Positions 48,384 through 64,000 of a stretch of DNA of 64,000 nt are shown here, piece after piece. The stretch's first letter is position 1, and every line of letters starts with the position of its first letter. The stretch spans positions 124,001-188,000 of the forward strand of contig NZ_VWNB01000004.1 in the NCBI RefSeq assembly GCF_013387475.1. The letters are read 5' to 3'. The notes under the pieces are model-generated. The model saw only the letters and a list, made by a program, of their open reading frames with translations, ran no database searches and was not told where the DNA came from. Source of the DNA: Mariprofundus sp. KV (lineage in GTDB: Bacteria; Pseudomonadota; Zetaproteobacteria; Mariprofundales; Mariprofundaceae). The translations under genes and the position numbers were made by a program.

Positions 48384-48423
48384 AGATTCAAGCAAGGGTA
48401 TTTCATGAATCAGGAGAATGATT

Positions 48424-48720
48424 GTGTCAGTCGAACAGCGAAAGGATGAGCGGTTTGCAGCCAGAGAGCTGTCTAAAGGGGAGCTCTACCATCCCAATTC
48501 CGGACAGTACCTGAGAGTCAAAAGCGTACGTGATGTCTCTATTGATGGTATCGGTCTGATGGTGGATGCCTTTCTGGAGCAGGGCGAGAAAATCCGTCTC
48601 GGCTTTAAATATGGCAGAAGCCATATTCAGATGTATGGCCGGGTGATCTGGTGTTCCCCTGCACCCTCCGAACTCTCTGAAGGCGATTCTACTTTATTCA
48701 TGCTGGGTGTAAGCCTGTAA
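48424..48720 (+). CDS. PilZ-domain protein 2
   Basis: A 98-residue PilZ domain with RKDER (RxxxR) and DVSIDGIG (DxSxxG), ending in YGRVIWCSP. GTG 48424 is six nt after AGGAGA; the ATG at 48418 overlaps that site and is unlikely. Very similar to the gene at 51567, with shared ELSKGEL, HPxSGQYL and YGRVxWCSP; the two flank pepN. Probable c-di-GMP receptor with unknown partner. Confidence 0.87.
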   Translation: MSVEQRKDERFAARELSKGELYHPNSGQYLRVKSVRDVSIDGIGLMVDAFLEQGEKIRLGFKYGRSHIQMYGRVIWCSPAPSELSEGDSTLFMLGVSL

Positions 48721-51566: not shown

Positions 51567-51869
51567 ATGGGCGTTGAACAACGTAAAGAAGAGCGCAGCT
51601 CTGCCCCTGAACTCTCGAAAGGCGAGCTGTTCCACCCCGGTTCAGGCCAATACCTGCATGTGGAGAGTGTGCGTGATCTCTCATTTACAGGCATAGGATT
51701 AAAAGTGGAGGCTCCTCTGGATGAGGGTGAGGAGATTCAGTTGGGCTTTAAACATTTCGGTAGAGCCGGGTTTCAAATCTATGGCCGTGTGGTCTGGTGT
51801 TCTCCTGTTACAGATGAGGTGTCTGGTGATCAATCCACAGTATCCTTTATGATGGGGATCAGTATATAG
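51567..51869 (+). CDS. PilZ-domain protein 3 (paralogue of PilZ 2)
   Basis: A 100-residue PilZ domain with RKEER (RxxxR) and DLSFTGIG (DxSxxG). It matches the protein at 48424 across nearly its whole length, for example VEQRKxER, ELSKGEL, HPxSGQYL and YGRVVWCSP. ATG after GGGGGA. It looks like a duplication that now brackets pepN. The c-di-GMP site is intact in all three PilZ proteins. Confidence 0.87.
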   Translation: MGVEQRKEERSSAPELSKGELFHPGSGQYLHVESVRDLSFTGIGLKVEAPLDEGEEIQLGFKHFGRAGFQIYGRVVWCSPVTDEVSGDQSTVSFMMGISI

Positions 51870-51912: not shown

Positions 51913-52398
51913 ATGATGAATATAGATAAATCTGAAATCCTCTCTCTGATCATGGAGCAGTTGCGTCTTGATCTTACCTCACTTGAGCAGGCTGTTGCGA
52001 TTGCCCGTGATACAGCAACACATAGCGATTGTCTGGGATCCAGTAAATATGAAACGATGGGTCTGGAAGCCTCGTATCTTGCACAGGGGCAGGGTCGACG
52101 CCTGCTGGAGATCGAACGCGCTCTGGAATATTTCAGGCGTTTATCCCTTGCCGGGCCGTCGCCGGTGGCACTCCTCTCCTCACTGGTGCTGCTGGATGAT
52201 GAGCAGGGGAATCGGCAGCTGTTATGGCTGGCCGCAGAGGCAGGTGGATTGAAGGTTCAATATCGCGATACGATGGTCACAGTGATCACACCCAGGTCGC
52301 CACTTGGTAAGGTTCTGACCGGCAGGTCTGTAGGGGATGAGTTTGAGATCAATATCGCCGGAAAAGTCCGTAGCTATGAGCTCTCAGCGATCTATTAA
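51913..52398 (+). CDS. GreA/GreB-family transcription factor-like protein
   Basis: A 161-residue protein with an N-terminal coiled-coil region (LRLDLTSLEQAVAIARD, KYETMGLEASYLAQGQGRR) and a C-terminal GreA/B domain (ITPRSPLGKVLTGRSVGDEFEI). Gre factors bind RNA polymerase and stimulate cleavage of backtracked RNA. The N-terminus departs from classical GreA, so it may be one of the Gre-like homologues that act differently. Start uncertain among three nearby ATGs. It meets the next gene tail to tail with a 4-bp overlap. Confidence 0.82.
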   Translation: MMNIDKSEILSLIMEQLRLDLTSLEQAVAIARDTATHSDCLGSSKYETMGLEASYLAQGQGRRLLEIERALEYFRRLSLAGPSPVALLSSLVLLDDEQGNRQLLWLAAEAGGLKVQYRDTMVTVITPRSPLGKVLTGRSVGDEFEINIAGKVRSYELSAIY

Positions 52399-53558
52399 GG
52401 TCTTACGCTTTCAAATCCCGGATCAGCCAAAATGTGATGGGTACTAAAGCCATTCCATAGCGAGTCATCTGTTGTGTAGTTCTGTTCACTTTGGAATGAT
52501 GGCTTAAGAGGGGGGATCATCTGATTGGCTTGTGCAAGCTTGTTATTATCCGGTTGAGCCTGTGGTTGATGAACCGGCTCTTCACTGCCCGGCACAAAAA
52601 TAGAGTGATGCGCCCAGGCGCTGGAGCCGTCCTGCAGGCGAACGAAATACCAGTCGCCCTGTTTTTGCATGCGGGTCACCACATCACCCTTTTGCAGCTG
52701 TTGAATCACTTCGCTATCACTGTCAGGGGCGGTTCTGATTTCAGCACTGTTGAGATCAACGGTCATCTCACCATTGACGGCCATCTGAATCTGGGCGTTT
52801 GATCGTGCATAGGTCTCTGCGATGAACTTTGTCTCCCCATTCAGCCCTTTAGCCAAATGGCGAGCCGCCGCCTGCACCGTCTGAAACAGGGCATCCCGAC
52901 TCTGCTCAGGGTTATCAATAAGTTTCGAAAAGGTTTTATAGGATTCAGCGTTACCCGCATATGGCACCATATTGATATCACCAAACAGATATTTCATCAC
53001 CTGCAGTGAGGTGACATCAATCCCTATGGTGAATCGGTCACTGTAGAGAACCTTCCTGGTCGTTGGTTCTATCAGTTCAGCCAGTACAAAGATGGATGGT
53101 TTGTAAGGCTCCAGAGGACTCCGGGACCAAAATCCGACATTTCTCAGTTCAACCTTGAGGATGGCATCCATCTGTTTGGTCAGCTGCTTCTGCTTGCCCC
53201 GGTAGTAGTCCCAGTAAGCTCTGTTTGAGCTGCTCGTACTGATCCCCTTCTGCGCCAGTGCATTGAGCAGTGACTCTTCAAAGAGAGTGTTGCAGATCCT
53301 GTTTATCGAGCCTGCGTGTTGTGTATACCGATTAGCCCGATGAATGAGCAGGGCTGTGTCGATCAGTATACCGGAGCTCCCCATGGCGAGAATGACCGGA
53401 TTGACCTGTTGAATCATCAACATTTTGGTTTTTTCTATTTTGGCGATTTCAATGTTTACGATCCTGGTTTCCAGAAGCGGCTGCAGCGGTTTTTTTGCCA
53501 AACCACATGAGCAGAGCAGAAGAAGCAACATGCATATAGAAATATGTTTTACTGTCAT
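52395..53558 (-). CDS. SH3-domain lipoprotein, paralogue A
   Basis: A 387-residue lipoprotein: signal ending LLLLLCSC with the lipobox Cys, then a conserved domain of unknown type (QQVNPVILAMGSSG, YWDYYRGKQKQ, VLYSDRFTIGIDVTSLQVMKYLFGDIN) and a bacterial SH3 domain at about 270-335 (IRTAPDSDSEV ... WYFVRLQDGSSAW). A Gln/Pro-rich tail follows. Paralogous to the gene at 53700, which lacks that long tail. SH3 domains of this kind usually bind cell-wall peptides. Function unknown. Confidence 0.82.
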   Translation of the reverse strand: MTVKHISICMLLLLLCSCGLAKKPLQPLLETRIVNIEIAKIEKTKMLMIQQVNPVILAMGSSGILIDTALLIHRANRYTQHAGSINRICNTLFEESLLNALAQKGISTSSSNRAYWDYYRGKQKQLTKQMDAILKVELRNVGFWSRSPLEPYKPSIFVLAELIEPTTRKVLYSDRFTIGIDVTSLQVMKYLFGDINMVPYAGNAESYKTFSKLIDNPEQSRDALFQTVQAAARHLAKGLNGETKFIAETYARSNAQIQMAVNGEMTVDLNSAEIRTAPDSDSEVIQQLQKGDVVTRMQKQGDWYFVRLQDGSSAWAHHSIFVPGSEEPVHQPQAQPDNNKLAQANQMIPPLKPSFQSEQNYTTDDSLWNGFSTHHILADPGFESVRP

Positions 53559-53699
53559 GAACTACACCGGCGCCTTGGTCGTATAAGGGTTTTGCGGCGC
53601 GAACCATACGCATGAAGGTGGCTATAACAAGCTTAGTTATACCGGAAAGGATCGTGAGTCTTATGTCAGCTAGGCCATGCAGCCTTGCATAAGTAGACT

Positions 53700-54698
53700 T
53701 TAGTTCGTGGTTACAACCTCTTGGCCCTTCAAGAATATTGAGTGATGCACCCAGGCGCTGGAGCCGTTGTCTTGCAACCGAACGTAGAGCCATTCACCCT
53801 GTTGTTGCATTTTGGTTGCGATAGTGCCTTTTTTTAATTTACGCAGAATTTTGCTTTTGGTGCTAGGGCCACTTCTGGCTCGTGCTCCCTTCACATCAAC
53901 GATCAGGTCATCTGATGTTGCGACTTGTACCTGAGCAGCAGATTTAGCGTAGGTTTTCATGATCGTTTTACTCTCGCCATTAAGCCCTTTTGCCATGTGG
54001 CGGGCTGCTGCAGCCACAGTTCTTAGAAGAGCTTTGCGGCTCTGTTCAGGGTTTTTCAGCAGTTTGTCAAAGCTGTCGTAGGATGGGGTTTTACGCAGAT
54101 TTGGTACAATATTGATGTCGCCATAGAGGAATTTCATCACCTGTAGAGAGGTGATGTCGATACCCATGGTAAAGCGGTCACTATACAGTACCTCCCGAGT
54201 CGCCGGATCTATCAATTCGGCCAGCACAAAAACCGAGGGCATATAAGGATCCAAAATGCTCTTGGACCAGAAGCCTAGATTTTTTAACTCAACCCTGAGG
54301 ATGGCATCGATTTTTTTGGTTGCCTCTTTTTGCTCGCCTTTATAATAATCCCAGTAATATTTTTTTTGAGACTTTGCCTTAATACCCTTTTTCGACAGAT
54401 TTTTTAGTAGCGATTCCTCAAATACGCTGGTGGCCATCTGGTTTACTTCACCGGCAGACTGTTTATATTCATTCGCCCGTTGAGCAACAATCGCTGTGTC
54501 GAGCAGCAGACCGGAAGAGCCCATGGCGAGGATGACCGGATTAACCTGTTGAATCATCAGTACTTTTCCTGTTTCCACCTTGGCGATTTCAATATGGTTC
54601 ACCCTGCTTTCCAGTACCGGCTGCAGTGGTTTTTTAACTGCGGCGCACGAGCAGAGGGCCAGAATCACAAGACATAAAGATAGCTGTTTAACAGACAT
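53700..54698 (-). CDS. SH3-domain lipoprotein, paralogue B
   Basis: A 332-residue lipoprotein with lipobox LALCSC and the same layout as paralogue A: central domain (QQVNPVILAMGSSG, YWDYYKGEQKE, VLYSDRFTMGIDITSLQVMKFLYGDIN) and SH3 domain (ARSGPSTKSKI ... WLYVRLQDNGSSAW). The two are tandem on the minus strand with 141 bp between them, probably a duplication. Paralogue B is more lysine-rich. A perfect 9-bp palindrome lies 28 nt before its start. Confidence 0.82.
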   Translation of the reverse strand: MSVKQLSLCLVILALCSCAAVKKPLQPVLESRVNHIEIAKVETGKVLMIQQVNPVILAMGSSGLLLDTAIVAQRANEYKQSAGEVNQMATSVFEESLLKNLSKKGIKAKSQKKYYWDYYKGEQKEATKKIDAILRVELKNLGFWSKSILDPYMPSVFVLAELIDPATREVLYSDRFTMGIDITSLQVMKFLYGDINIVPNLRKTPSYDSFDKLLKNPEQSRKALLRTVAAAARHMAKGLNGESKTIMKTYAKSAAQVQVATSDDLIVDVKGARARSGPSTKSKILRKLKKGTIATKMQQQGEWLYVRLQDNGSSAWVHHSIFLKGQEVVTTN

Positions 54699-54845: not shown

Positions 54846-55367
54846 CTACTTTTTGTACGAGTAACCGTCGGTTTTAACGGTACCAAGCTCTTTTTTGTTG
54901 GGATCTTTGTTCTCTTTGGCTTTGATGCCGTTGGGGTCAGCCGATTTGACGCTGCTGACAACCCCCTGTTCGTTCATAAATACATATTGCGATTTAGCCG
55001 AACCTCTGTGGTAGATCATCAAATCACTTTTACCCTTTTCGCTGAGAGTGGAGTCGATCTCATCGGGTTTACCCCATGAGCGAACAACATCCTTCCGGCT
55101 CATGCCAATCGCCACCTTCTTCAGGCGGATCAGTTTTTCAGCTTTTTCTGCAGTCAGGTCACCATGCTCTTTCACTGTCGGTTTCTTACTGCGGGGGTAC
55201 TCCTTCAGGTTCTTTGTTTCGAGAATATCGGACTTGTTCTGACAAGGGGTATTTGTCCAGACAGGGGTATCAAACACACCGGGGCCTTTGCATTTATACA
55301 GTCCTGCGGCATCTGCACTGCCGACAACAACAAAAATCAGCGAAAGCGCGGTTACTACTCTCTTCAT
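54846..55367 (-). CDS. Small secreted protein with SmpA/OmlA-like repeat
   Basis: A 173-residue exported protein: signal peptide about 1-20 (ending SADA), a short N-terminal Cys motif (LYKCKGPGVFDTPVWTNTPC) reminiscent of DUF4124, and a block IGMSRKDVVRSWGKPDEI that fits the SmpA/OmlA or DUF2845 fold seen in outer-membrane assembly lipoproteins. It ends with a Lys-rich tail. The function is not established. Last clearly chromosomal-type gene before the accessory region. Confidence 0.75.
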   Translation of the reverse strand: MKRVVTALSLIFVVVGSADAAGLYKCKGPGVFDTPVWTNTPCQNKSDILETKNLKEYPRSKKPTVKEHGDLTAEKAEKLIRLKKVAIGMSRKDVVRSWGKPDEIDSTLSEKGKSDLMIYHRGSAKSQYVFMNEQGVVSSVKSADPNGIKAKENKDPNKKELGTVKTDGYSYKK

Positions 55368-55628
55368 GCTCTTATCCTCTCTGCCAAGCGTCGCTTAGCA
55401 AGCAGTGTAGCCGATAAACAGATCACTGCCAGCCTGAGAGAGGCATGGAGAAGATTTGTTGCAAGTATAGCGTGTCCTGATCAGTTGGTTATAGGAGTGA
55501 TGTGCTTTATTAAGGGCTATTTGCATTCTAGGGTTGAAAGCTAGCTTTTACACATCAAATTATAGCCTCATCAAAAATCACAGTCTGGTTGAAATGAACG
55601 CCAATACTTCGCCAGCGTTTCTGGTCAG

Positions 55629-56375
55629 TCAGGTTGAACTTTGGCTAATCATCTCTAATACATTGTTAGCCGCTGTCCCGGCCAAAGCCTTTAGTCGCAT
55701 AGCCGAAGATGTAATTTTTTCTGTATCTACAATAAGGGTCTTCAGTTTAGAAAGAAACCCTTTGTCATTCGTTGACTGAGAGACATCGGGGCTCAGCATG
55801 AAGTCTCCAATGGTTGTAGCTACAGATTCCCTCAAGCCACTCGCTCCTTTGAGGCGATAGTCAAATATACCACGGCGGATCACTTCGAGTTCTTTCAGGA
55901 TAAAGTTCTTTATCGGCTCATCAAGATCAGATGCAATTACTTCTTCTGACAGGTTTTCTACCTTGTCTTTTATCTCAACGATTGATTCTGAGATATCATC
56001 TTCTGAAAATGCGCTTGAGAGTAATTCAGAGCAATGTTCCAAGCTATCCATAGTTGCTTCACTTAATTGACTTTCTGAAGTGCTCCAAGCAGCTCCAAGT
56101 TGGTCTATCCGGGTTGCGTTTTCGATTTTTTCGAAATGCTTCAAATACAGGGATTGTCTAACATCCATCCCTGATATCTTTTCTCGAACTTCATGAATAA
56201 GGGCCTTGAGGTTGGCCAGCTGTCCGATCAGCCTCAGAGGGCCATCTGGTTCCTCTAAATTGATTTCAAACACATCTGCCCACATTTGCATTACGCTCTT
56301 TTGGCGATGCTGCCCATCCTTTGATTCTTCGAGAATTGAATGCAACCTGCTTGCTGGATTGTTCCTTTCACTCAT
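55629..56375 (-). CDS. Alpha-helical protein of unknown function (last gene of the restriction operon)
   Basis: A 248-residue protein with no signal peptide or membrane segment, predicted almost all helical and acidic (SESIVEIKDKVENLSEEVIAS, DEPIKNFILKELEVIRRGIFDY). No family recognised. It starts 32 nt after the transposase-like gene, with its own AGGTGG site, and is the last gene in the same direction as the restriction operon. Composition is AT-richer than the core genes. A partner or regulator role is guessed from position only. Confidence 0.7.
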   Translation of the reverse strand: MSERNNPASRLHSILEESKDGQHRQKSVMQMWADVFEINLEEPDGPLRLIGQLANLKALIHEVREKISGMDVRQSLYLKHFEKIENATRIDQLGAAWSTSESQLSEATMDSLEHCSELLSSAFSEDDISESIVEIKDKVENLSEEVIASDLDEPIKNFILKELEVIRRGIFDYRLKGASGLRESVATTIGDFMLSPDVSQSTNDKGFLSKLKTLIVDTEKITSSAMRLKALAGTAANNVLEMISQSST

Positions 56376-56407
56376 TTAAGCCACCTGTTGTATTTAATGC
56401 GACCACA

Positions 56408-57703
56408 TTAATCATCTCCGAAGTTAGAGATGTATCGTCCATAGTCAGACACCTTAGCATTACCCCATGCAGAAACTGGATCTGTGATGCTTTTAGGGGT
56501 GCCTGTATGGGTGATTACTCTACCTGCCTGTGAGCTCACCTTGGCATAAAGTAATCGGGCACGAATAATCTCATAACTGTATCCACGTCCCATCCTGTTA
56601 TTGAGCTTTGTGATCCCGTTCTTAGCCTCGGTGTAGGCATTTGTAATCGGAAAATCGAAGTAGTTGAAGATGTTCTGGTGATGTCGATTAACCATTGCGC
56701 CGACTTCACCGAAGTATGGCATAAACTCAGGAGGGATTGAGTTCAACCATCTGCTGAATTCCGCCTCTGCATTTGCACGGCCATCTATTTCGTAAATGCT
56801 GTGGAACTCCTCAGCCAGGTCATACGCCAAAGCTAACTTAGGATAATCCTGTCGGATGAGTTCAAGTTTCTCATCGTCGGCTTCAGTACGCTTCTCATTC
56901 CGCCTCAAGAGCCCCCAGCGAAGTCCTTTCTTCAAGCGTATTCTATCACTTTTCTCGAGTTGGCTTTGGATATTAATGCGCAATTGGTCCAGCGCCCGAC
57001 TTGCTTTTTCGATAACATGGTATCGGTCAATTACTAGCCGAGCATTGGGAAGTTCTTGCTCCAGTACAATCTTGAATGGCCCCCACATATCCAAGGCAAC
57101 CCATTCCACTCGCTCCTTATCCTTCAGGTTTTTGAAGAACTCAATCATGTGTTGTTTAGTTCTTCTTTCATACATCTCGAAGACGGTTCTCATTTCGAGA
57201 TTAGTCACAACTGCCCGGTAACTACCCCCAACCTTCACCTCATCCAACCCCATGATTCGAGGTGTTTCACGCTCATGGTTTTCATCAAGCCATTCGAGAT
57301 AATCGAGAGCAATTGATTTAACTGTATTCACTACGAGGCCTGTTTCTTCAGATAGCGCTGTGAACGTATATTTGAAGCACCTGCTCTGAATCAGGCCAAT
57401 GAGTCGCTTTGTCGCTACCCGCTTATCATCAAGCGAAGGAATATTGGGGGTCTCCACCTTGCCGCACACTTTGCAGCGATAACGCTGCCGTTCAATTTCG
57501 ACTCTAACTGGCTTTCCATACAATGGGGTGTCTGCATAGCTATAGACCCGAGAACCGTGCTTATATAGCGGTTTGCAGCCACAAGATGGGCAATTCTCTG
57601 GCGGCATAATATTTGCAGTGGCGACTATAGTAACGCCATCGTTTTCCACTCTCTGACCGAGATGAGAAACACCCTCCAGCAGTAAGAGATCAGGCGTCAT
57701 TGT
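56408..57703 (-). CDS. ISL3-family transposase-like protein
   Basis: A 431-residue DDE transposase of the ISL3 type. It has an N-terminal zinc finger (CPSCGCKPLYKHG ... CKVCGKVETP), an HTH region and DDE residues in GLDEVKVGG, ALDMWGPF / VIDRYHVIEKA and NAYTEAKNGITK. I start at ATG 57703, five nt after GAGG, so it overlaps the end of hsdR by 14 nt; ATG 57721 is an alternative. No terminal inverted repeats or target duplication could be found around it, and it keeps operon-like spacing on both sides. It may be a recent IS or a gene co-opted into the operon. Confidence 0.85.
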   Translation of the reverse strand, partial: TMTPDLLLLEGVSHLGQRVENDGVTIVATANIMPPENCPSCGCKPLYKHGSRVYSYADTPLYGKPVRVEIERQRYRCKVCGKVETPNIPSLDDKRVATKRLIGLIQSRCFKYTFTALSEETGLVVNTVKSIALDYLEWLDENHERETPRIMGLDEVKVGGSYRAVVTNLEMRTVFEMYERRTKQHMIEFFKNLKDKERVEWVALDMWGPFKIVLEQELPNARLVIDRYHVIEKASRALDQLRINIQSQLEKSDRIRLKKGLRWGLLRRNEKRTEADDEKLELIRQDYPKLALAYDLAEEFHSIYEIDGRANAEAEFSRWLNSIPPEFMPYFGEVGAMVNRHHQNIFNYFDFPITNAYTEAKNGITKLNNRMGRGYSYEIIRARLLYAKVSSQAGRVITHTGTPKSITDPVSAWGNAKVSDYGRYISNFGDD

Positions 57704-60700
57704 CACCTCTAGCTTGTTCAATCATTCCTGCAGCAACGTCCTTGCTCAGCATTTCATACACGACAGTCAGGAACAGATTGCGCGTAACCTCATCACCAAG
57801 CAGGCGCTTGGCCATGCTCTGGTGTGATCCCATCGCTTCTACAATTGCCTTGGTAGCTGCCGATGGAAGATCAGCCTTCATGGCTTGGTCAACCGGGTTA
57901 TTACGAACCTGATCCATGACCTTTTCGTTGCCTCTCAGCTTCTCACTGATATGGACTGCAAAGGCTACCTTGTCCTTGTCAGTAACATCCTTGCCAAAGG
58001 CCTCGTTCAGCCTCTGGATCAGTTCTGCAAGGTATGCCCGTTCACGGTCTTTCGGGTCGCGTCCGCCGGTTCCTGATGTTGGCTTCAGTTTGTCAGGATC
58101 ACCATCCCCAAGTCCTGAACCAAGTTCACCTTTATGCAGCAGTTTGAAGTGGGTCAGTGCAAGCCCAGTGATATCGACTTCCTCCGGTGTTGCACCCTTC
58201 AACCGCTTCTTGAGTAGCTTGGCAAAGGCTGCAAACGCTTCCATTTCAGCATCGCCAAACTCGATCAACTGGGCACAGTATTCGTATGCCCGAACAAACT
58301 TGGCCAACCCTTCACTGAAGATCAGGAGTTCATCGCGTGCCTTAGTGTGCTCAGAGCGCCGTGCATCTGCCTTGGCCATCTTGTCCTTGTCGCCACTTCG
58401 CTCTGCAATCTGGTACTCACGCTCGCACACATCAATCGCATCATTAAGCATCTTCATGCGACCATTGAATCGATCTGTAGCAGGCTGAGTGACTGAGTAG
58501 AGCTTGGCATGTGACGGGTTGGGGGCTGTGATTGCCAGGCCAAACTGACGCACTTCCTCAGCCTCATATACCTGCATATCATCAAGGCGCATTTTCATGT
58601 CGTACACGATATGTGGGTTCTGGATATCAGATATCTGCGCCGCCTTATAGTAGAGCTTGAATGCAGCCAGAATTTCTTCCGGATCATTGGCGAAGTCGAT
58701 GACGTATGTGGTGTCCTTGCCCTTATGCGTCCGATTCAGCCGTGAGAGCGTCTGTACGGCTTCTACGCCGGAGATTTTCTTATCCAGATACATCGCCACC
58801 AGTTTGGGTTGGTCAAAGCCTGTCTGGAACTTATTCGCGACCAGCATAACCTGATACTCAGGCGTATCGAATGCCTTGCGGAGATCACGGCCCTTGGCGC
58901 CAGGATTCATATTGTCTTCTGTGAACACTTCGTCTTCCGGATATCGGAAATCGATATCATCATTGATCTGTTTGCCGAGGATTTTGCCGGAGAAAGCGAC
59001 CATGGACTGAATACCACGGTATCCCTGCTTCTCAACATACCGGTCAAAAGCCAACTTGTATTTGACGGCAGCAGCACGGGAGTTCGTAACCACCATCGCC
59101 TTGGCCTGCCCGCCCAGCAGGTGAACCACGTTGGAGTGGAAGTGCTCAATGATCAGATGCACTTTCTGCGTTACATTGGTCGGGTGTAGGGTCAACCACT
59201 TCGCTAGGGCTCTACCAGCGTACTTGGTATCAACCCGCTTTTTGTCTGCATACTCGCTGCCCAGTTTGAACGCCATTTTGTAGCTGGTGTAGTTCTGCAA
59301 CACATCAAGGATGAACCCTTCCTCAATGGCCTGCTGCATGGTGTAGGTGTGGAATGCCACGGGTGGATTGTCTGACGACACATCCTCTGCCGGATTCTGG
59401 GGGCGACCAAACAGCATCAACGTCGAGTGCTTTGGTGTAGCCGTAAATGCGAAGTGGCTTACGTTGTCAGGCAATCCACGCACGCTTTGTAGCTTCTCCA
59501 GAATCTCATCCGGTGTCATAGCTGCCAGATCTTCTGATGAATCCAGTGCGAGTACCTGCCGAAGCTTGCTGGCCACACTACCGGTCTGTGAGTTGTGGGC
59601 TTCATCAATAATAACGGCAAATTTCCGGTCACGAAGGCTCTGCTCAGTCAGGATGGCCTCCATGGCATACGGAAAAGTCTGGAGGGTCACCACGATGATC
59701 GGGGTGCCATCCAGAAGCGCCTGAGCAAGCTGCTGGCTTTTGGGCAGGCTGGATGTTTCACGGTCTACCGCTTTGACCACACCGGTCTGGTGTTCGATCT
59801 GGCTAATGGCTTCCTGCAACTGAGCATCCAGCACGGTCCGGTCGGTCACCACGATGACCGAGTTGAAGTAAGGCGTGCCGTCATCATGGCGGAGCCGGAT
59901 CAGTTCATGCGAAGTCCATGAGATCGTGTTCGTCTTGCCTGAACCGGCGCTGTGCTGGTTCAGGTATTGATGGCCGGGACCTTCTTTCCTGACCGTATCG
60001 ATCATCTGGGTGACTGCTTCCCACTGGTGATAGCGCGGGAATATCTGAGTTTCCTTGTACTGGAGGGTGCCCTGGGCAGTCTCTTCCTCCTTCTTCTCAG
60101 TGAACACGAACCTGTGAAAGATGCGAAGCCAGTTATCCCTCTGCATCAAATCTTCCCACATGTATTTGACCGGGTATGGATCAGCAGCCGGATTGCCAGC
60201 AGCCCCATCATTTCCCTTGTTGAACGGTAGGAAATAGGTCGAATCGCCGGCCAGTTTGGTGGTCATGTAAACTTCCGAATCTGACATGGCGAAGTGAACG
60301 ACTGCACCACGTTTGAACGTCAGTAGCGGCTCCATACGCCCGGTGTATGTGCTCTTCGGGTTGCGGTCGGAGCGATACTGGTGTTTGGCTGCTTCAACTG
60401 ACTGCGTGAAGTCGGTCTTGAGCTCGAATGTCGCAACAGGGATGCCGTTGATAAAAGCGACCAGATCAATCGCATTTTCATTATCGAGTGAGTACCGAAC
60501 CTGACGGACAATCCTGACCCGGTTGGCAGCATAGCGTTTCTGCACGGTTTCATTGCGAGCATCTTCCGGCATCGACTGGCTCATCTGGACAGTGCCGCCT
60601 CCGGCTACACCAAATCCACGACGTAGCACTTTCACAGTGCCTCCGGTTTTCGCATCCAGCGTAGCTGCAAGCCTCTCCAGCACGACTTTCTCAGCATCGC

Positions 60701-60887
60701 CCTTATGGATGCGCGAAAGCTTTTCCCATGTCTCTGGCTGGCTTTCCTGAATCCATCCGATCACATCCTCCGGGTAGAGGGCCAGTTTCCGGTCATGCTT
60801 AGACGGATCGCCTTCAATCCAACCGTTTCCGGTAAGGTGATCAACGATGAATTTCTCGAAATGAATCTCGTGGTGTGCTGCTGACAT
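57690..60887 (-). CDS. hsdR: Type I restriction enzyme, R subunit HsdR
   Basis: Motor and nuclease subunit of a type I restriction system. The 1065-residue protein has an N-terminal PD-ExK nuclease domain (NAIDLVAFINGIPVATFELKT), then a superfamily 2 helicase with Walker A NQHSAGSGKTNT, the DEAH box VIIDEAHNSQTG, FTATPK and motif VI SRLNRTHKGK. It would cut unmethylated DNA after translocation. The start has a GAGGGG site, 27 nt after the Zn-ribbon gene. Length is normal for the family. Confidence 0.95.
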   Translation of the reverse strand: MSAAHHEIHFEKFIVDHLTGNGWIEGDPSKHDRKLALYPEDVIGWIQESQPETWEKLSRIHKGDAEKVVLERLAATLDAKTGGTVKVLRRGFGVAGGGTVQMSQSMPEDARNETVQKRYAANRVRIVRQVRYSLDNENAIDLVAFINGIPVATFELKTDFTQSVEAAKHQYRSDRNPKSTYTGRMEPLLTFKRGAVVHFAMSDSEVYMTTKLAGDSTYFLPFNKGNDGAAGNPAADPYPVKYMWEDLMQRDNWLRIFHRFVFTEKKEEETAQGTLQYKETQIFPRYHQWEAVTQMIDTVRKEGPGHQYLNQHSAGSGKTNTISWTSHELIRLRHDDGTPYFNSVIVVTDRTVLDAQLQEAISQIEHQTGVVKAVDRETSSLPKSQQLAQALLDGTPIIVVTLQTFPYAMEAILTEQSLRDRKFAVIIDEAHNSQTGSVASKLRQVLALDSSEDLAAMTPDEILEKLQSVRGLPDNVSHFAFTATPKHSTLMLFGRPQNPAEDVSSDNPPVAFHTYTMQQAIEEGFILDVLQNYTSYKMAFKLGSEYADKKRVDTKYAGRALAKWLTLHPTNVTQKVHLIIEHFHSNVVHLLGGQAKAMVVTNSRAAAVKYKLAFDRYVEKQGYRGIQSMVAFSGKILGKQINDDIDFRYPEDEVFTEDNMNPGAKGRDLRKAFDTPEYQVMLVANKFQTGFDQPKLVAMYLDKKISGVEAVQTLSRLNRTHKGKDTTYVIDFANDPEEILAAFKLYYKAAQISDIQNPHIVYDMKMRLDDMQVYEAEEVRQFGLAITAPNPSHAKLYSVTQPATDRFNGRMKMLNDAIDVCEREYQIAERSGDKDKMAKADARRSEHTKARDELLIFSEGLAKFVRAYEYCAQLIEFGDAEMEAFAAFAKLLKKRLKGATPEEVDITGLALTHFKLLHKGELGSGLGDGDPDKLKPTSGTGGRDPKDRERAYLAELIQRLNEAFGKDVTDKDKVAFAVHISEKLRGNEKVMDQVRNNPVDQAMKADLPSAATKAIVEAMGSHQSMAKRLLGDEVTRNLFLTVVYEMLSKDVAAGMIEQARGDNDA

Positions 60888-60914
60888 TTTATCCCCTCGG
60901 GCTGAAGTGCTGGC

Positions 60915-61367
60915 TCAATCCCAACATATCATCTCCTGTCCTTTAATCAGTGTTTTCTGGCCACACTTACTGCAATTGTACCGGGCTATTTCTTCTTCGG
61001 TTGGTTCTTCGACAAAACCAAATTCATTCAGCTTCCCAACTGGCCCAATCAGCTCGCGCCGGCACTTGTGGCAGTTGCATCTCGTTTCGAATGTCTCGCC
61101 TTCGCCGTGCTTGAATTTAGCATAAAAGCGTCGGGAAAGAGTGTTGCACTTAGGGCAAGCATAGAGTCTGTATTCAAACGCGCCGCCTTCCTCAATGTGA
61201 TAGCCCTCGTCGTAATGTTTTCGCACCAATATATTGATCTCTTTCCGAGCCTTGCCGCGAACATTCATCGCCTCAAACCCAACATCGCCACGCATCATTC
61301 CTGATCCAAGGAAGTAGCCCTGTTCATCACCGCAAGATGTGCAGATGGTAGAGATGCCGGAGCCCAT
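60915..61367 (-). CDS. Multi-zinc-ribbon protein in the restriction operon
   Basis: A 150-residue protein with four CxxC pairs: CTSC near the N-terminus, CPKC in the middle, CNCHKC and CSKC toward the end. It therefore probably carries two zinc ribbons. No enzymatic motif. It lies between the KAP NTPase (14 nt) and hsdR (27 nt). Zinc ribbons often bind nucleic acid or proteins, so an adaptor role is possible. No family recognised. Confidence 0.75.
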   Translation of the reverse strand: MGSGISTICTSCGDEQGYFLGSGMMRGDVGFEAMNVRGKARKEINILVRKHYDEGYHIEEGGAFEYRLYACPKCNTLSRRFYAKFKHGEGETFETRCNCHKCRRELIGPVGKLNEFGFVEEPTEEEIARYNCSKCGQKTLIKGQEMICWD

Positions 61368-61381
61368 TATTTTATTTTCAC

Positions 61382-62731
61382 CTAGCGTTCCATCGGAAGA
61401 TCAATTCTTTCTGCCAGGAATGGCAGCAGACGCTCGACTTCTAGCCCGTAGTTCCACAACCCTTGGTTAAGTTGTTTTAATTCTTCAGAACCATTGGTGA
61501 ATCCACTTATATGCCCCTCATGCAACGCACGTATGCTGTTCAACAGTGGCCAATTCCTATCTCTTCCACCATCAAACTTTTGTTGCATAACATCGACAAT
61601 TTTCTGGGCCTCTCCATGAGCTACTTTATCGCCTTTAATTAGGCGGTTAAATAAATTCGGATTAGATACCTTGAGAGCTATCACGTAAGCCAAAAAATGA
61701 TTTGCCACATTAACCGGCTGGGCGAATGCATATAACGCGACCCCTCGTTCAATGTCTCGAAGAGATAAATTCAGGAGTGAAGCCATCATCCCAAACACTT
61801 CAGAAAAGCCGCCAACCTGTCTGCCTTCTGAAAAGCTATATCGGTCGAACACATGGTTCACATATTGTTTCACATGATCATTTGCCTGAGTTTCAACTGA
61901 TGTTTGCTTTGGTAAAAGGAAGAAGAAGTTGACGAATTTGCTAAGGTAAGCAGATGCATCCGTATCTGCACCATAAACGCCTTTTACTGCCTTCTCTAGC
62001 TGATCTCGATTGAGCAGCAGAATGAATACAAGGTTTGGCACATCAAAGAAGTGCTTCAGTCGCTCAATTAGCTGTACTGCAAATGTAGGACGACACCTAT
62101 CCAGCTCATCGATAAAGATAACCACAGGCTTGTCTTGCCTTCCAGAAAACTCAGCTAATGAGTCCCGAAACTGTTGAACAGAGACCTTTTCTTGGGCGTG
62201 TTCTTCCAGTCTCTTTTCCACCCATTGCCCAGCCATATCTGAACCGCCTGCACTGGCTGCTTCGACTGCCCCCCTGAATTCTTCCGACAGATCGGCAGAA
62301 CCCAAGGCCAAACGACCAGCAAGGTTCAGCATGACCTTGGTTCCCATTGGCAAGATTGCCTTCGCTACACTTGCAGCTTTCTGCCTGAGAGGTCTGGCGC
62401 CTTCTTCACCGCTATCCAACACTTCAGAAATTTCAGCGGCAATGAGTAAGAATGGATCCTCGCTATAGTCCTGTTCGAACGCATCAATGAATACCACTTT
62501 GTGCTCTTGCTCATCGAGATGTTTTGCCCAATTTCGACCAAACCACGATTTCCCTTCCCCCCACGGAGCGTCAATGGCAAGAACAGCACCTTCACGCAAG
62601 CGATCCATGTAACTGGTTAATCTTTCTGCCAATTGCCTCCTATCAAGTAGGTCGCCTTCGAAGGCATGCTCACCTACAAAAGGTTTTCTCGGTAAGCTTA
62701 ACGACGGCAATGGCTTTTCTTGTTGAGTCAT
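61382..62731 (-). CDS. KAP-family P-loop NTPase in the restriction operon
   Basis: A 449-residue KAP-type STAND-like NTPase. Walker A is APWGEGKSWF, Walker B is VVIFIDELDRCRP, and the helical KAP region follows (LIERLKHFFDVPNLVFILLLNRDQ). The family often carries membrane helices in the NTPase region; here no convincing helix is seen, so it may be soluble. KAP NTPases occur in several anti-phage systems. Its ATG overlaps the hsdS stop by four nt (ATGA), so it is translated with the specificity subunit. A role in restriction or a second defence layer is inferred. Confidence 0.88.
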   Translation of the reverse strand: MTQQEKPLPSLSLPRKPFVGEHAFEGDLLDRRQLAERLTSYMDRLREGAVLAIDAPWGEGKSWFGRNWAKHLDEQEHKVVFIDAFEQDYSEDPFLLIAAEISEVLDSGEEGARPLRQKAASVAKAILPMGTKVMLNLAGRLALGSADLSEEFRGAVEAASAGGSDMAGQWVEKRLEEHAQEKVSVQQFRDSLAEFSGRQDKPVVIFIDELDRCRPTFAVQLIERLKHFFDVPNLVFILLLNRDQLEKAVKGVYGADTDASAYLSKFVNFFFLLPKQTSVETQANDHVKQYVNHVFDRYSFSEGRQVGGFSEVFGMMASLLNLSLRDIERGVALYAFAQPVNVANHFLAYVIALKVSNPNLFNRLIKGDKVAHGEAQKIVDVMQQKFDGGRDRNWPLLNSIRALHEGHISGFTNGSEELKQLNQGLWNYGLEVERLLPFLAERIDLPMER

Positions 62732-64000
62732 GCTGCATCCCTCACATCAATCTTCCCCGTCACAACCGCTGTAATCAACGCAGAGCGCCTTTCCTTGAGG
62801 AGTTCGATGCTCTTCTCGGTCTTCTCCATCAAAGAGTCGATGCGGGTGGTTTCGCCGTCGAGAAAGGTTACTATTGCAGTCTGCTCGCGCACAGAGGGGA
62901 CTATCAGTGGCAGGCGCTTTAAATCATCAAACTTCATAGACTGCCTCATTCCTCCGCCCATTGAATAAAACACCTTCATAACGTCGTATGAGCGCATCAA
63001 ATAGTTGAGGTAGTCCGCATCAAATCCTGAAGTCCTTACGGCAAGGTATGCGGAAGTAATGATCCCTTTCTCTTTGCAGATTGCTGATCGAAGGCTGCGC
63101 TTGTCGTTCTGTAAATCTGTTAGTCGGAATACGATGTCATTAGGATGAATTAACTGATAAGTCTCAAATGATGCTGGCAACAAGCCTTCATCAGTATTGA
63201 TGTCCTTGGGTACAATTCTCCCATAGCTCAATGACAAAAGATTGGTTTCAATCATCCCTTTGTTTGGCTCTTTACGTTCCATTGTCTGGGCAAAGAAAGG
63301 CTTTATACCCCAACATTCCGGCACATCCCCCAGCCACTCCACGCCTGATGGTTTATATGCCGGATATGGCTTTCCTGTGCTTACATCGAACTTACCTGTC
63401 ACTGCATCGGTTATGAGCGCCTGGCGCTTTTCTTTCAGTAACTCGATGAATCGCTGTTTCTTCTCTACCAAAGAGTCGATGCGGGTGGTTTCGCGGTCGA
63501 GGAAGGTGGCGATGGCGGATTGTTCGTTAGAATCAATTGGCGCAGACACGAGGAGGGTTTTGATCTTATCGCCACTAATGTTCGGTTGCCCAGCTCCAGT
63601 TGCTAAGGTGATCAACTCATCTCGGAATCCTTGAAACCAATATTCGAGCAAATCCAAAGAAATGAGGTCGTTTGGATGGATGGCAAAGCAAGCTTGATTA
63701 AGCGTAGCGGGAATACCAAGCCGTCCAATACGACCGACTGTGGCACCATACATTGCAATCACCAGCGAATCAGCGGGATGAACTTTTAGTGCTGAATAAG
63801 AAGCGATGGCTTTTTGGGTGACACGTTTATCTGTAGAGAAAATGGTGTTCTCTCGAAGCTCTCCTGTAGTGACCCAAGGAGTGCCAGAATCAGAATAATC
63901 AGCCTCATTGGGTGGAGTTGTTCCACTTCCATAGGCATCAAACCAATGTGAAAGCTTCTTTGTCTCCCATCCCTCCGGCACATCCCCCAGCCACTCCACG
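62728..64000 (-). CDS. hsdS: Type I restriction specificity subunit HsdS (5' end beyond window)
   Basis: DNA-recognition subunit of the type I system. 423 residues are seen; the sequence opens inside the usual GVEWLGDVPEGW start block, so only a few N-terminal codons are missing. Two target-recognition domains (about 1-165 and 225-370) alternate with two conserved helical spacers, TTRIDSLVEKKQRFIELLKE and TTRIDSLMEKTEKSIELLKE. The block CATCCCCCAGCCACTCCACG-type sequence occurs at 63325-63344 and again at the window end, and the spacers are nearly identical in DNA too. hsdM should lie just outside the window. Confidence 0.93.
   Translation of the reverse strand, partial: VEWLGDVPEGWETKKLSHWFDAYGSGTTPPNEADYSDSGTPWVTTGELRENTIFSTDKRVTQKAIASYSALKVHPADSLVIAMYGATVGRIGRLGIPATLNQACFAIHPNDLISLDLLEYWFQGFRDELITLATGAGQPNISGDKIKTLLVSAPIDSNEQSAIATFLDRETTRIDSLVEKKQRFIELLKEKRQALITDAVTGKFDVSTGKPYPAYKPSGVEWLGDVPECWGIKPFFAQTMERKEPNKGMIETNLLSLSYGRIVPKDINTDEGLLPASFETYQLIHPNDIVFRLTDLQNDKRSLRSAICKEKGIITSAYLAVRTSGFDADYLNYLMRSYDVMKVFYSMGGGMRQSMKFDDLKRLPLIVPSVREQTAIVTFLDGETTRIDSLMEKTEKSIELLKERRSALITAVVTGKIDVRDAA

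What the first reader, a model, noticed from the sequence alone, without database searches (positions are those of the whole stretch)
55629..64000. Type I restriction operon with embedded KAP NTPase, Zn-ribbon, transposase-like and helical genes
hsdS overlaps a KAP NTPase by 4 nt; a Zn-ribbon protein follows after 14 nt, hsdR after 27 nt, a transposase-like gene overlaps hsdR by 14 nt, and a helical protein follows after 32 nt. All six are on one strand with their own ribosome sites. A KAP NTPase coupled to the specificity subunit would fit an extended defence system in which restriction and a second NTPase-driven response act together. This is the best candidate here for an undescribed system.
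Basis: partly seen in the sequence, partly recalled or inferred. Interest (0 to 1): 0.75.

Follow-up and report, generated by a model that had tools for sequence, protein, structure and literature searches.

The report
Jumping gene carrying restriction-modification and extras
The six genes are part of one 10.7-kb transposon of a known type (an ISL3-family element whose cargo is a complete type I restriction-modification system), here with three extra genes slotted in; it matters because the same layout, with different defence genes and the jumping enzyme's own binding motif laid over the operon promoter, recurs across dozens of bacteria.

Summary
The gene list is right; the 'undescribed defence system' is not. 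The operon (hsdM, just outside the window, then hsdS, KAP NTPase, Zn-ribbon, hsdR, ISL3 transposase, helical gene) is one 10,729-bp ISL3-family transposon. It has 24-bp terminal inverted repeats (21/24) and a perfect 8-bp target duplication, TTATTAAG. Its nearest described kin is ISKpn25 (8,154 bp, hsdM-hsdS-hsdR-tnp), published with hsdM as a passenger gene and as having jumped into mgrB. I found about 60 relatives. In 56 of 58, hsdR and tnp lie -26 to +12 nt apart; 17 other elements have perfect 8-bp duplications; tnp, hsdM and hsdR diverged together (Mantel r 0.97-0.98), whereas hsdS and accessory genes turn over. The KAP/Zn-ribbon pair occupies a variable cargo slot that elsewhere holds AbiD, RhuM, YhcG-type nuclease, GmrSD or PIN genes. 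KAP and helical homologues occur as orphans; the Zn-ribbon recurs in unrelated RM operons. Most novel: in 27 of 27 elements the inverted-repeat motif is repeated three times at the promoter end, one copy overlapping the -35 box, one the predicted start and Shine-Dalgarno of hsdM. That predicts that the transposase represses its own restriction operon (untested). Verdict: new variant of a known kind.

The parts
55507..55514 (.). 8-bp target-site duplication TTATTAAG, copy at the transposase end (the second copy is outside the window, C23:190244-190251)
   Evidence: Identical to the 8 bp outside the other inverted repeat
55515..55538 (+). 24-bp terminal inverted repeat GGCTATTTGCATTCTAGGGTTGAA (3' end of the operon); its partner GGCTATTTGCATTTGAAGGTTGAA is outside the window at C23:190220-190243, minus strand
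   Evidence: 21/24 identical to the other end
55629..56375 (-). helical protein of unknown function, 248 aa; cargo after tnp, inside the transposon
   Evidence: No Pfam or NCBIfam hit; orphan homologues on plasmids and in 5 other genomes of a phylum sample
56408..57700 (-). ISL3-family DDE transposase (ATG start 57700, overlaps hsdR by 11 nt; GTG start 57706 possible)
   Evidence: PF01610 E 2.5e-51; NF033550 269 bits against cut-off 180; D154, D226, E359 invariant
57690..60887 (-). hsdR, type I restriction subunit, 1065 aa; Walker A GSGKT, DEAH and D-(x)n-ELK nuclease motif present
60915..61367 (-). double Zn-ribbon protein (four CxxC), 150 aa; RM-associated family
   Evidence: Alignment A3; homologues in other RM operons
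61382..62731 (-). KAP P-loop NTPase, 449 aa, PDC-S20 candidate defence family
   Evidence: PF07693 E 1.9e-37; PDLC04959 E 2.9e-82
62728..64000 (-). hsdS, 437 aa, two target-recognition halves; its first 41 nt lie beyond the window. Upstream of it, outside the window, the element continues with hsdM (C23:188189-190108), TIR-like copy 3 (C23:190117-190133), predicted promoter TTGACA-16-TATTCT (C23:190140-190167) whose -35 box begins within TIR-like copy 2 (C23:190163-190179), and the promoter-end TIR

Best explanation
The locus is a 10,729-bp ISL3-family transposon of the ISKpn25 kind. Its fixed core is hsdM, hsdR and the transposase; hsdS (the specificity) and accessory genes are swappable cargo. 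Here the cargo is a KAP NTPase plus a double Zn-ribbon protein between hsdS and hsdR, and a helical protein after tnp. Mechanism: the transposase (DDE catalytic domain, N-terminal Zn-ribbon and HTH) binds the 24-bp ends and inserts the whole block into AT-rich targets with an 8-bp duplication (shown here by ends and duplications; transposition of ISKpn25 itself is reported in the literature). One promoter at the hsdM end is predicted to drive all genes; tnp is late in the operon and probably translationally coupled to hsdR (inferred from the 11-nt overlap and the single predicted promoter). The RM genes protect the host replicon from foreign DNA, and may also penalise loss of the element (inferred). 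KAP and Zn-ribbon are most likely an extra anti-phage module or modules riding in the operon, not subunits of the restriction enzyme (inferred). Because the end motif is repeated over the -35 box and over the start/Shine-Dalgarno of hsdM, the transposase probably represses the operon, holding restriction and transposition low once established and releasing both on entry into a new cell (inferred, untested; about 0.5 likely). The confidence given is for the transposon-with-cargo reading.
For: TIR 21/24 and TSD 8/8 at both ends of the block. 17 further elements with perfect 8-bp TSD, 7.9-10.9 kb. ISL3 transposase over curated cut-off, catalytic residues intact. hsdR within -26 to +12 nt of tnp in 56/58 loci. 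tnp-hsdM-hsdR distances correlate at r 0.97-0.98; with hsdS only 0.50-0.54. 26 of 45 loci with all four core genes carry accessory ORFs between hsdM and hsdR, with AbiD, YhcG/PDC-S02, RhuM/PDC-S05, GmrSD, PIN among them. ISKpn25 is listed with 8,154 bp and four ORFs including RM genes, and identical copies occur on pKpQIL plasmids and in mgrB (PMC8796155); hsdM is called a passenger gene of ISKpn25 (PMC5142620). Transposase in only 2 of 78 genomes of the class, which suggests horizontal acquisition. Leader motif in at least three direct copies in 27/27 elements; a single copy at the other end in all but L033 and L064.
Against: No transposition of this copy was observed, and no sibling genome gave a clean empty site: the tRNA-Val/thrS side is conserved but the other flank is not. 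Defence function of KAP, Zn-ribbon and helical genes rests on homology or context only. The autoregulation step rests on sequence layout alone; related elements are not independent tests of the motif.
Confidence: 0.9

Rival explanations
1. One extended type I defence system: KAP NTPase and Zn-ribbon act together with HsdMSR as a functional complex, with the transposase a bystander.
For: 4-nt hsdS/KAP overlap, same operon; Zn-ribbon homologues sit in other RM operons directly before or near hsdR (L090, L092) or beside a type IIG enzyme (L091); a KAP-like C-terminus precedes hsdR in L053.
Against: The pair was not found elsewhere; the same slot holds unrelated genes in relatives, and 19 of 45 relatives have no accessory gene there; the KAP homologue regions opened have no hsd genes; the block has transposon ends.
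Confidence: 0.1
2. Domesticated transposase: the ISL3 gene no longer moves DNA and has become a regulator or partner of the RM operon.
For: Tight coupling to hsdR; co-divergence with hsdM and hsdR; motif over the promoter; single copy in this genome.
Against: Intact ends and perfect 8-bp duplications in 18 elements including this one; catalytic triad conserved; published jumping of ISKpn25.
Confidence: 0.04
3. The three TIR-like copies at the promoter end serve only as extra transposase-binding sites for assembling the transposition complex, not as operators (a rival to the regulatory step only).
For: An ISL3-family element without RM genes (L066) also has a second copy near its left end.
Against: The extra copies lie at the promoter end only, in all but one of 27 elements; one overlaps the -35 box and one the predicted start and Shine-Dalgarno of hsdM.
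Confidence: 0.4

Closest known systems
ISKpn25 (ISL3 family, 8,154 bp; PMC8796155, PMC5142620)
   Same: hsdM-hsdS-hsdR-transposase in one operon inside ISL3-type ends, 8-bp duplication; same leader motif layout (L010, about 97% identical over its tnp end to plasmid copies named ISKpn25)
   Different: Here 10.7 kb, tnp about 47%, hsdM about 52%, hsdR about 55% identical to complete relatives (ISKpn25 itself was not one of the sequences compared), and extra KAP, Zn-ribbon and helical genes
ISSm4-type elements (Serratia, Citrobacter, Aeromonas plasmids)
   Same: hsdM-[nuclease]-hsdS-hsdR-tnp with matching ends
   Different: Cargo is a YhcG-type PD-(D/E)XK nuclease between hsdM and hsdS; the Serratia copy inspected has no target duplication
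ISPst2-type ISL3 elements with two passenger genes (PMC6305408)
   Same: ISL3 ends beginning GG, 8-bp duplication, passenger genes
   Different: Cargo is ArsR regulator and permease, not RM
[quoted passage not shown] cholerae VPI-2 (PMC12409362)
   Same: Defence genes embedded between the subunits of a type I RM operon
   Different: Different genes, on a genomic island; no transposase is mentioned for that cluster in the passages read
PDC-S20 (PADLOC candidate) and QatA KAP NTPases
   Same: KAP P-loop protein of the same family (PDC-S20)
   Different: QatA only partial and far below cut-off (35.8 against 600 bits); no Qat partners in the operon

Membership tests
ISL3-family transposon | ISL3 transposase with DDE domain | tested here: met
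   NF033550 269 bits against cut-off 180; PF01610
ISL3-family transposon | terminal inverted repeats of about 24 bp beginning GG | tested here: met
   GGCTATTTGCAT..., 21/24; pattern as in PMC6305408 Table 3
ISL3-family transposon | 8-bp target duplication | tested here: met
   TTATTAAG on both sides
ISL3-family transposon | transposition activity | not testable with these tools
   Reported for the relative ISKpn25 (PMC8796155)
ISKpn25 group (ISL3 with type I RM passengers) | hsdM, hsdS, hsdR upstream of tnp in one orientation inside the ends | tested here: met
ISKpn25 group (ISL3 with type I RM passengers) | only RM passengers (true of ISKpn25 itself; not of many relatives) | tested here: not met
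   KAP, Zn-ribbon and helical genes added; accessory cargo is shared with 25 other relatives, so this marks a variant, not exclusion
Type I restriction-modification | HsdM, HsdS, HsdR with catalytic motifs | tested here: met
   (NPPF, GSGKT, DEAH, ELK); HsdM and HsdR score below the NCBIfam cut-offs of the hsdM and hsdR models
Type I restriction-modification | methylation and restriction activity | not testable with these tools
   needs methylome and phage plating
PDC-S20 KAP candidate defence family | match to family model | tested here: met
   PDLC04959 E 2.9e-82
Qat system | QatA over cut-off plus QatB, QatC, QatD | tested here: not met
   QatA 35.8 of 600 bits; no Qat partners in the operon

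The most novel reading that the evidence does not exclude
ISKpn25-type elements are modular mobile defence platforms (fixed hsdM-hsdR-tnp core, three cargo slots) in which the transposase is also the repressor of the whole defence operon through TIR-like operators over its promoter, so that restriction, embedded defence genes and jumping are controlled as one unit.
Probability: 0.45. Interest if true: 0.7.

Novelty: new variant of a known kind. Interest (0 to 1): 0.5.

Why it matters
Some recurrent defence-gene combinations around type I RM can be explained as cargo of one transposon family rather than as joint systems. If the transposase represses the operon, a selfish element has tied its mobility to a defence system it carries, and this could be tested in E. 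coli. The Zn-ribbon family, seen next to three other RM systems and matched by no family model convincingly, is a separate candidate RM accessory gene.

Tried and rejected
Extended KAP-HsdS system: rejected as main reading after the cargo survey and the orphan KAP neighbourhoods. Insertion of a lone ISL3 IS downstream of hsdR: rejected, no suitable inverted repeats around tnp alone and ends enclose the whole operon. Qat system: rejected by score. Clean empty site in siblings: not recovered; right flank conserved, left flank only partly conserved in G054 with about 2.4 kb of sequence between. Zn-ribbon structure: model of medium confidence (pLDDT 76), no PDB match, no strong sequence relative with a solved structure. 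Zn-ribbon in viral contigs and plasmids: none. Literature on ISL3 autoregulation and on RM passengers under those search terms: no hits.

Full report
Observation. The six genes, their order, strand and spacing are as described, except that the hsdR/transposase overlap is 11 nt from the ATG (or 17 from a GTG), not 14. Domain assignments are confirmed by Pfam and PADLOC models. The window cuts the operon: the contig continues (window = C23:124001-188000), hsdS is completed 41 nt beyond the window and hsdM (639 aa, C23:188189-190108) follows, 147 nt upstream of hsdS. Beyond hsdM lie a tRNA-Val and thrS.

What it is. Searching the regions outside hsdM and outside the helical gene for inverted repeats gave a 24-bp pair, GGCTATTTGCATTCTAGGGTTGAA (window 55515-55538) and GGCTATTTGCATTTGAAGGTTGAA (C23:190220-190243), 21 of 24 identical, flanked on both sides by the same 8 bp, TTATTAAG. 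The enclosed element is 10,729 bp and holds every gene of the finding plus hsdM. Ends beginning GG and 8-bp duplications are what ISL3-family elements show (examples in PMC6305408), and the transposase passes the curated ISL3 cut-off with invariant D154, D226 and E359. No fitting inverted-repeat pair surrounds the transposase gene alone.

Relatives. The closest plasmid matches to the transposase lie against type I hsdR genes. A genome-wide scan plus plasmid regions gave about 60 loci, in Alpha-, Beta-, Gamma- and Zetaproteobacteria, Acidithiobacillus and others. In nearly every locus with a long transposase match at 43% identity or more and enough flanking sequence, hsdR precedes it; the distance is -26 to +12 nt in 56 of 58, most often an 8-nt overlap. 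Automatic end detection found perfect 8-bp duplications in 18 elements including this one. Within 38 complete loci, transposase, HsdM and HsdR distances are almost proportional (Mantel r 0.97-0.98), while HsdS follows weakly (0.50-0.54), so the core travels as a unit and specificity is exchanged. The window's element is a deep branch (tnp 47%, hsdM 52%, hsdR 56% to the nearest complete elements); one Zetaproteobacteria MAG contig has a 67% transposase (L015). In the class, 2 of 78 genomes carry the transposase and none of the 22 other genomes of the genus does.

Cargo. 26 of 45 loci with all four core genes carry at least one accessory ORF of 90 aa or more between hsdM and hsdR, in either or both gaps; in L027 and here genes also follow tnp inside the ends. 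Families include YhcG-type PD-(D/E)XK nuclease (PDC-S02), AbiD/Abi_2, GmrSD, RhuM (PDC-S05), PIN, Schlafen-AlbA, RlaP nucleotidyltransferase, and a TIR plus caspase pair. The window's KAP (PDC-S20) and Zn-ribbon therefore occupy a variable slot. KAP homologues on five plasmids were inspected: none lies with annotated hsd genes or a Zn-ribbon gene. One other element, L053, has a KAP-like C-terminus directly before hsdR (33% over 93 aa); the contig ends before the rest. The Zn-ribbon family (four CxxC) is rare (four genomes with strong matches, this one included, in samples of about 400), but all three other genomes with strong matches put it beside RM genes: hsdS-TIR-coiled coil-AbiD-ZnR-GmrSD-hsdR (L090), hsdS-ZnR-ZnR-hsdR (L092), and next to a type IIG enzyme (L091). 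The helical protein has orphan homologues in unrelated settings.

Regulation. The promoter-side end holds three direct copies of the inner repeat motif (TGCAttctaaGGTTGga; four in L051) in all 27 elements examined, copy 2 usually 56-57 nt and copy 3 about 102-103 nt after the end, with diverged sequence between; shuffled leaders give 0.016 hits per 160 nt. The other end has one copy in 25 of 27; L033 has a second, and L064's terminal copy departs from the strict pattern. In the window's element the -35 box TTGACA begins within copy 2 (C23:190163-190179), TATTCT follows after 16 nt, and copy 3 (C23:190117-190133) runs into the hsdM Shine-Dalgarno; this is the only promoter-like site on that strand in the 400 nt scanned, and none was found on that strand across 55350-64000. 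The -10 match across elements is above shuffles but modest (67% against 30% with at least 4 of 6). A transposase that binds its ends should therefore also sit on this promoter. That is inference; an ISL3-family element without RM genes (L066) also has a second copy near its left end, so part of the layout may be older than the RM cargo.

Comparison with what is known. ISKpn25 is listed with 8,154 bp and four ORFs including RM subunits (PMC8796155; the ORF functions in that table look shifted); a copy identical to that on pKpQIL plasmids sits in mgrB in colistin-resistant isolates (same paper, citing Giordano et al. 2018); and hsdM is named as one of its passenger genes (PMC5142620). L010 and Klebsiella plasmids carry that element or a close relative. 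Defence genes embedded in type I RM operons are published for TgvAB (PMC12409362). From memory, not tested: a 2024 preprint by Payne and colleagues on defences embedded within immune systems, which may be the source of the PDC names. So the kind is known; the new points are this deep, cargo-bearing member, the breadth of the family with its cargo slots, the promoter layout and the RM-associated Zn-ribbon. I found no paper describing the last three in the held library, which is only part of the literature.

Verdict. Not a new defence system but a well-supported transposon carrying one, with extra cargo. Interest 0.5, mainly for the modular cargo and the predicted transposase control of a restriction operon.

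Noticed in passing
L090:6344-6760, L092:1751-2620, L091:6793-7185: Zn-ribbon relatives of the window gene lie inside two other type I RM operons and beside a type IIG enzyme; the window protein matches no Pfam, NCBIfam or PADLOC model convincingly.
   Followed up: partly
L073:86-1669: A 1,584-bp internally deleted derivative of an ISKpn25-like element: start of hsdM joined to the end of tnp, both inverted repeats kept (TIR 21/24, no clear duplication).
   Followed up: partly
L027:11302-12659: A TIR-domain gene and a caspase-like gene follow the transposase inside an element with 24/24 ends and a perfect duplication (Methylophaga).
   Followed up: partly
window 57690-60887 (hsdR residues 968-1051): The C-terminus of HsdR matches the C-terminus of the candidate family PDC-S15 (E 1.6e-10).
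   Followed up: no
L080:5804-8996: In a Klebsiella pIncFIBpQil plasmid the hsdR of the ISKpn25-like element is annotated as several short ORFs, so it may be broken or the sequence may hold errors; of 1,637 plasmids matching the L010 tnp end only 552 hold most of it.
   Followed up: no
window 52395-54698: Two tandem paralogous genes with signal-peptide-like N-termini and bacterial SH3 domains on the minus strand.
   Followed up: no
window 48418-48720 and 51567-51869: Two closely similar short genes (about 100 aa) flanking an aminopeptidase-like gene; they look like PilZ-type paralogues.
   Followed up: no
L066:8952-11251: An ISL3-family element without RM genes also has a second inner-repeat copy about 54 nt from its left end that contains TTGAC, so promoter-end repeats may be wider in ISL3.
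   Followed up: partly
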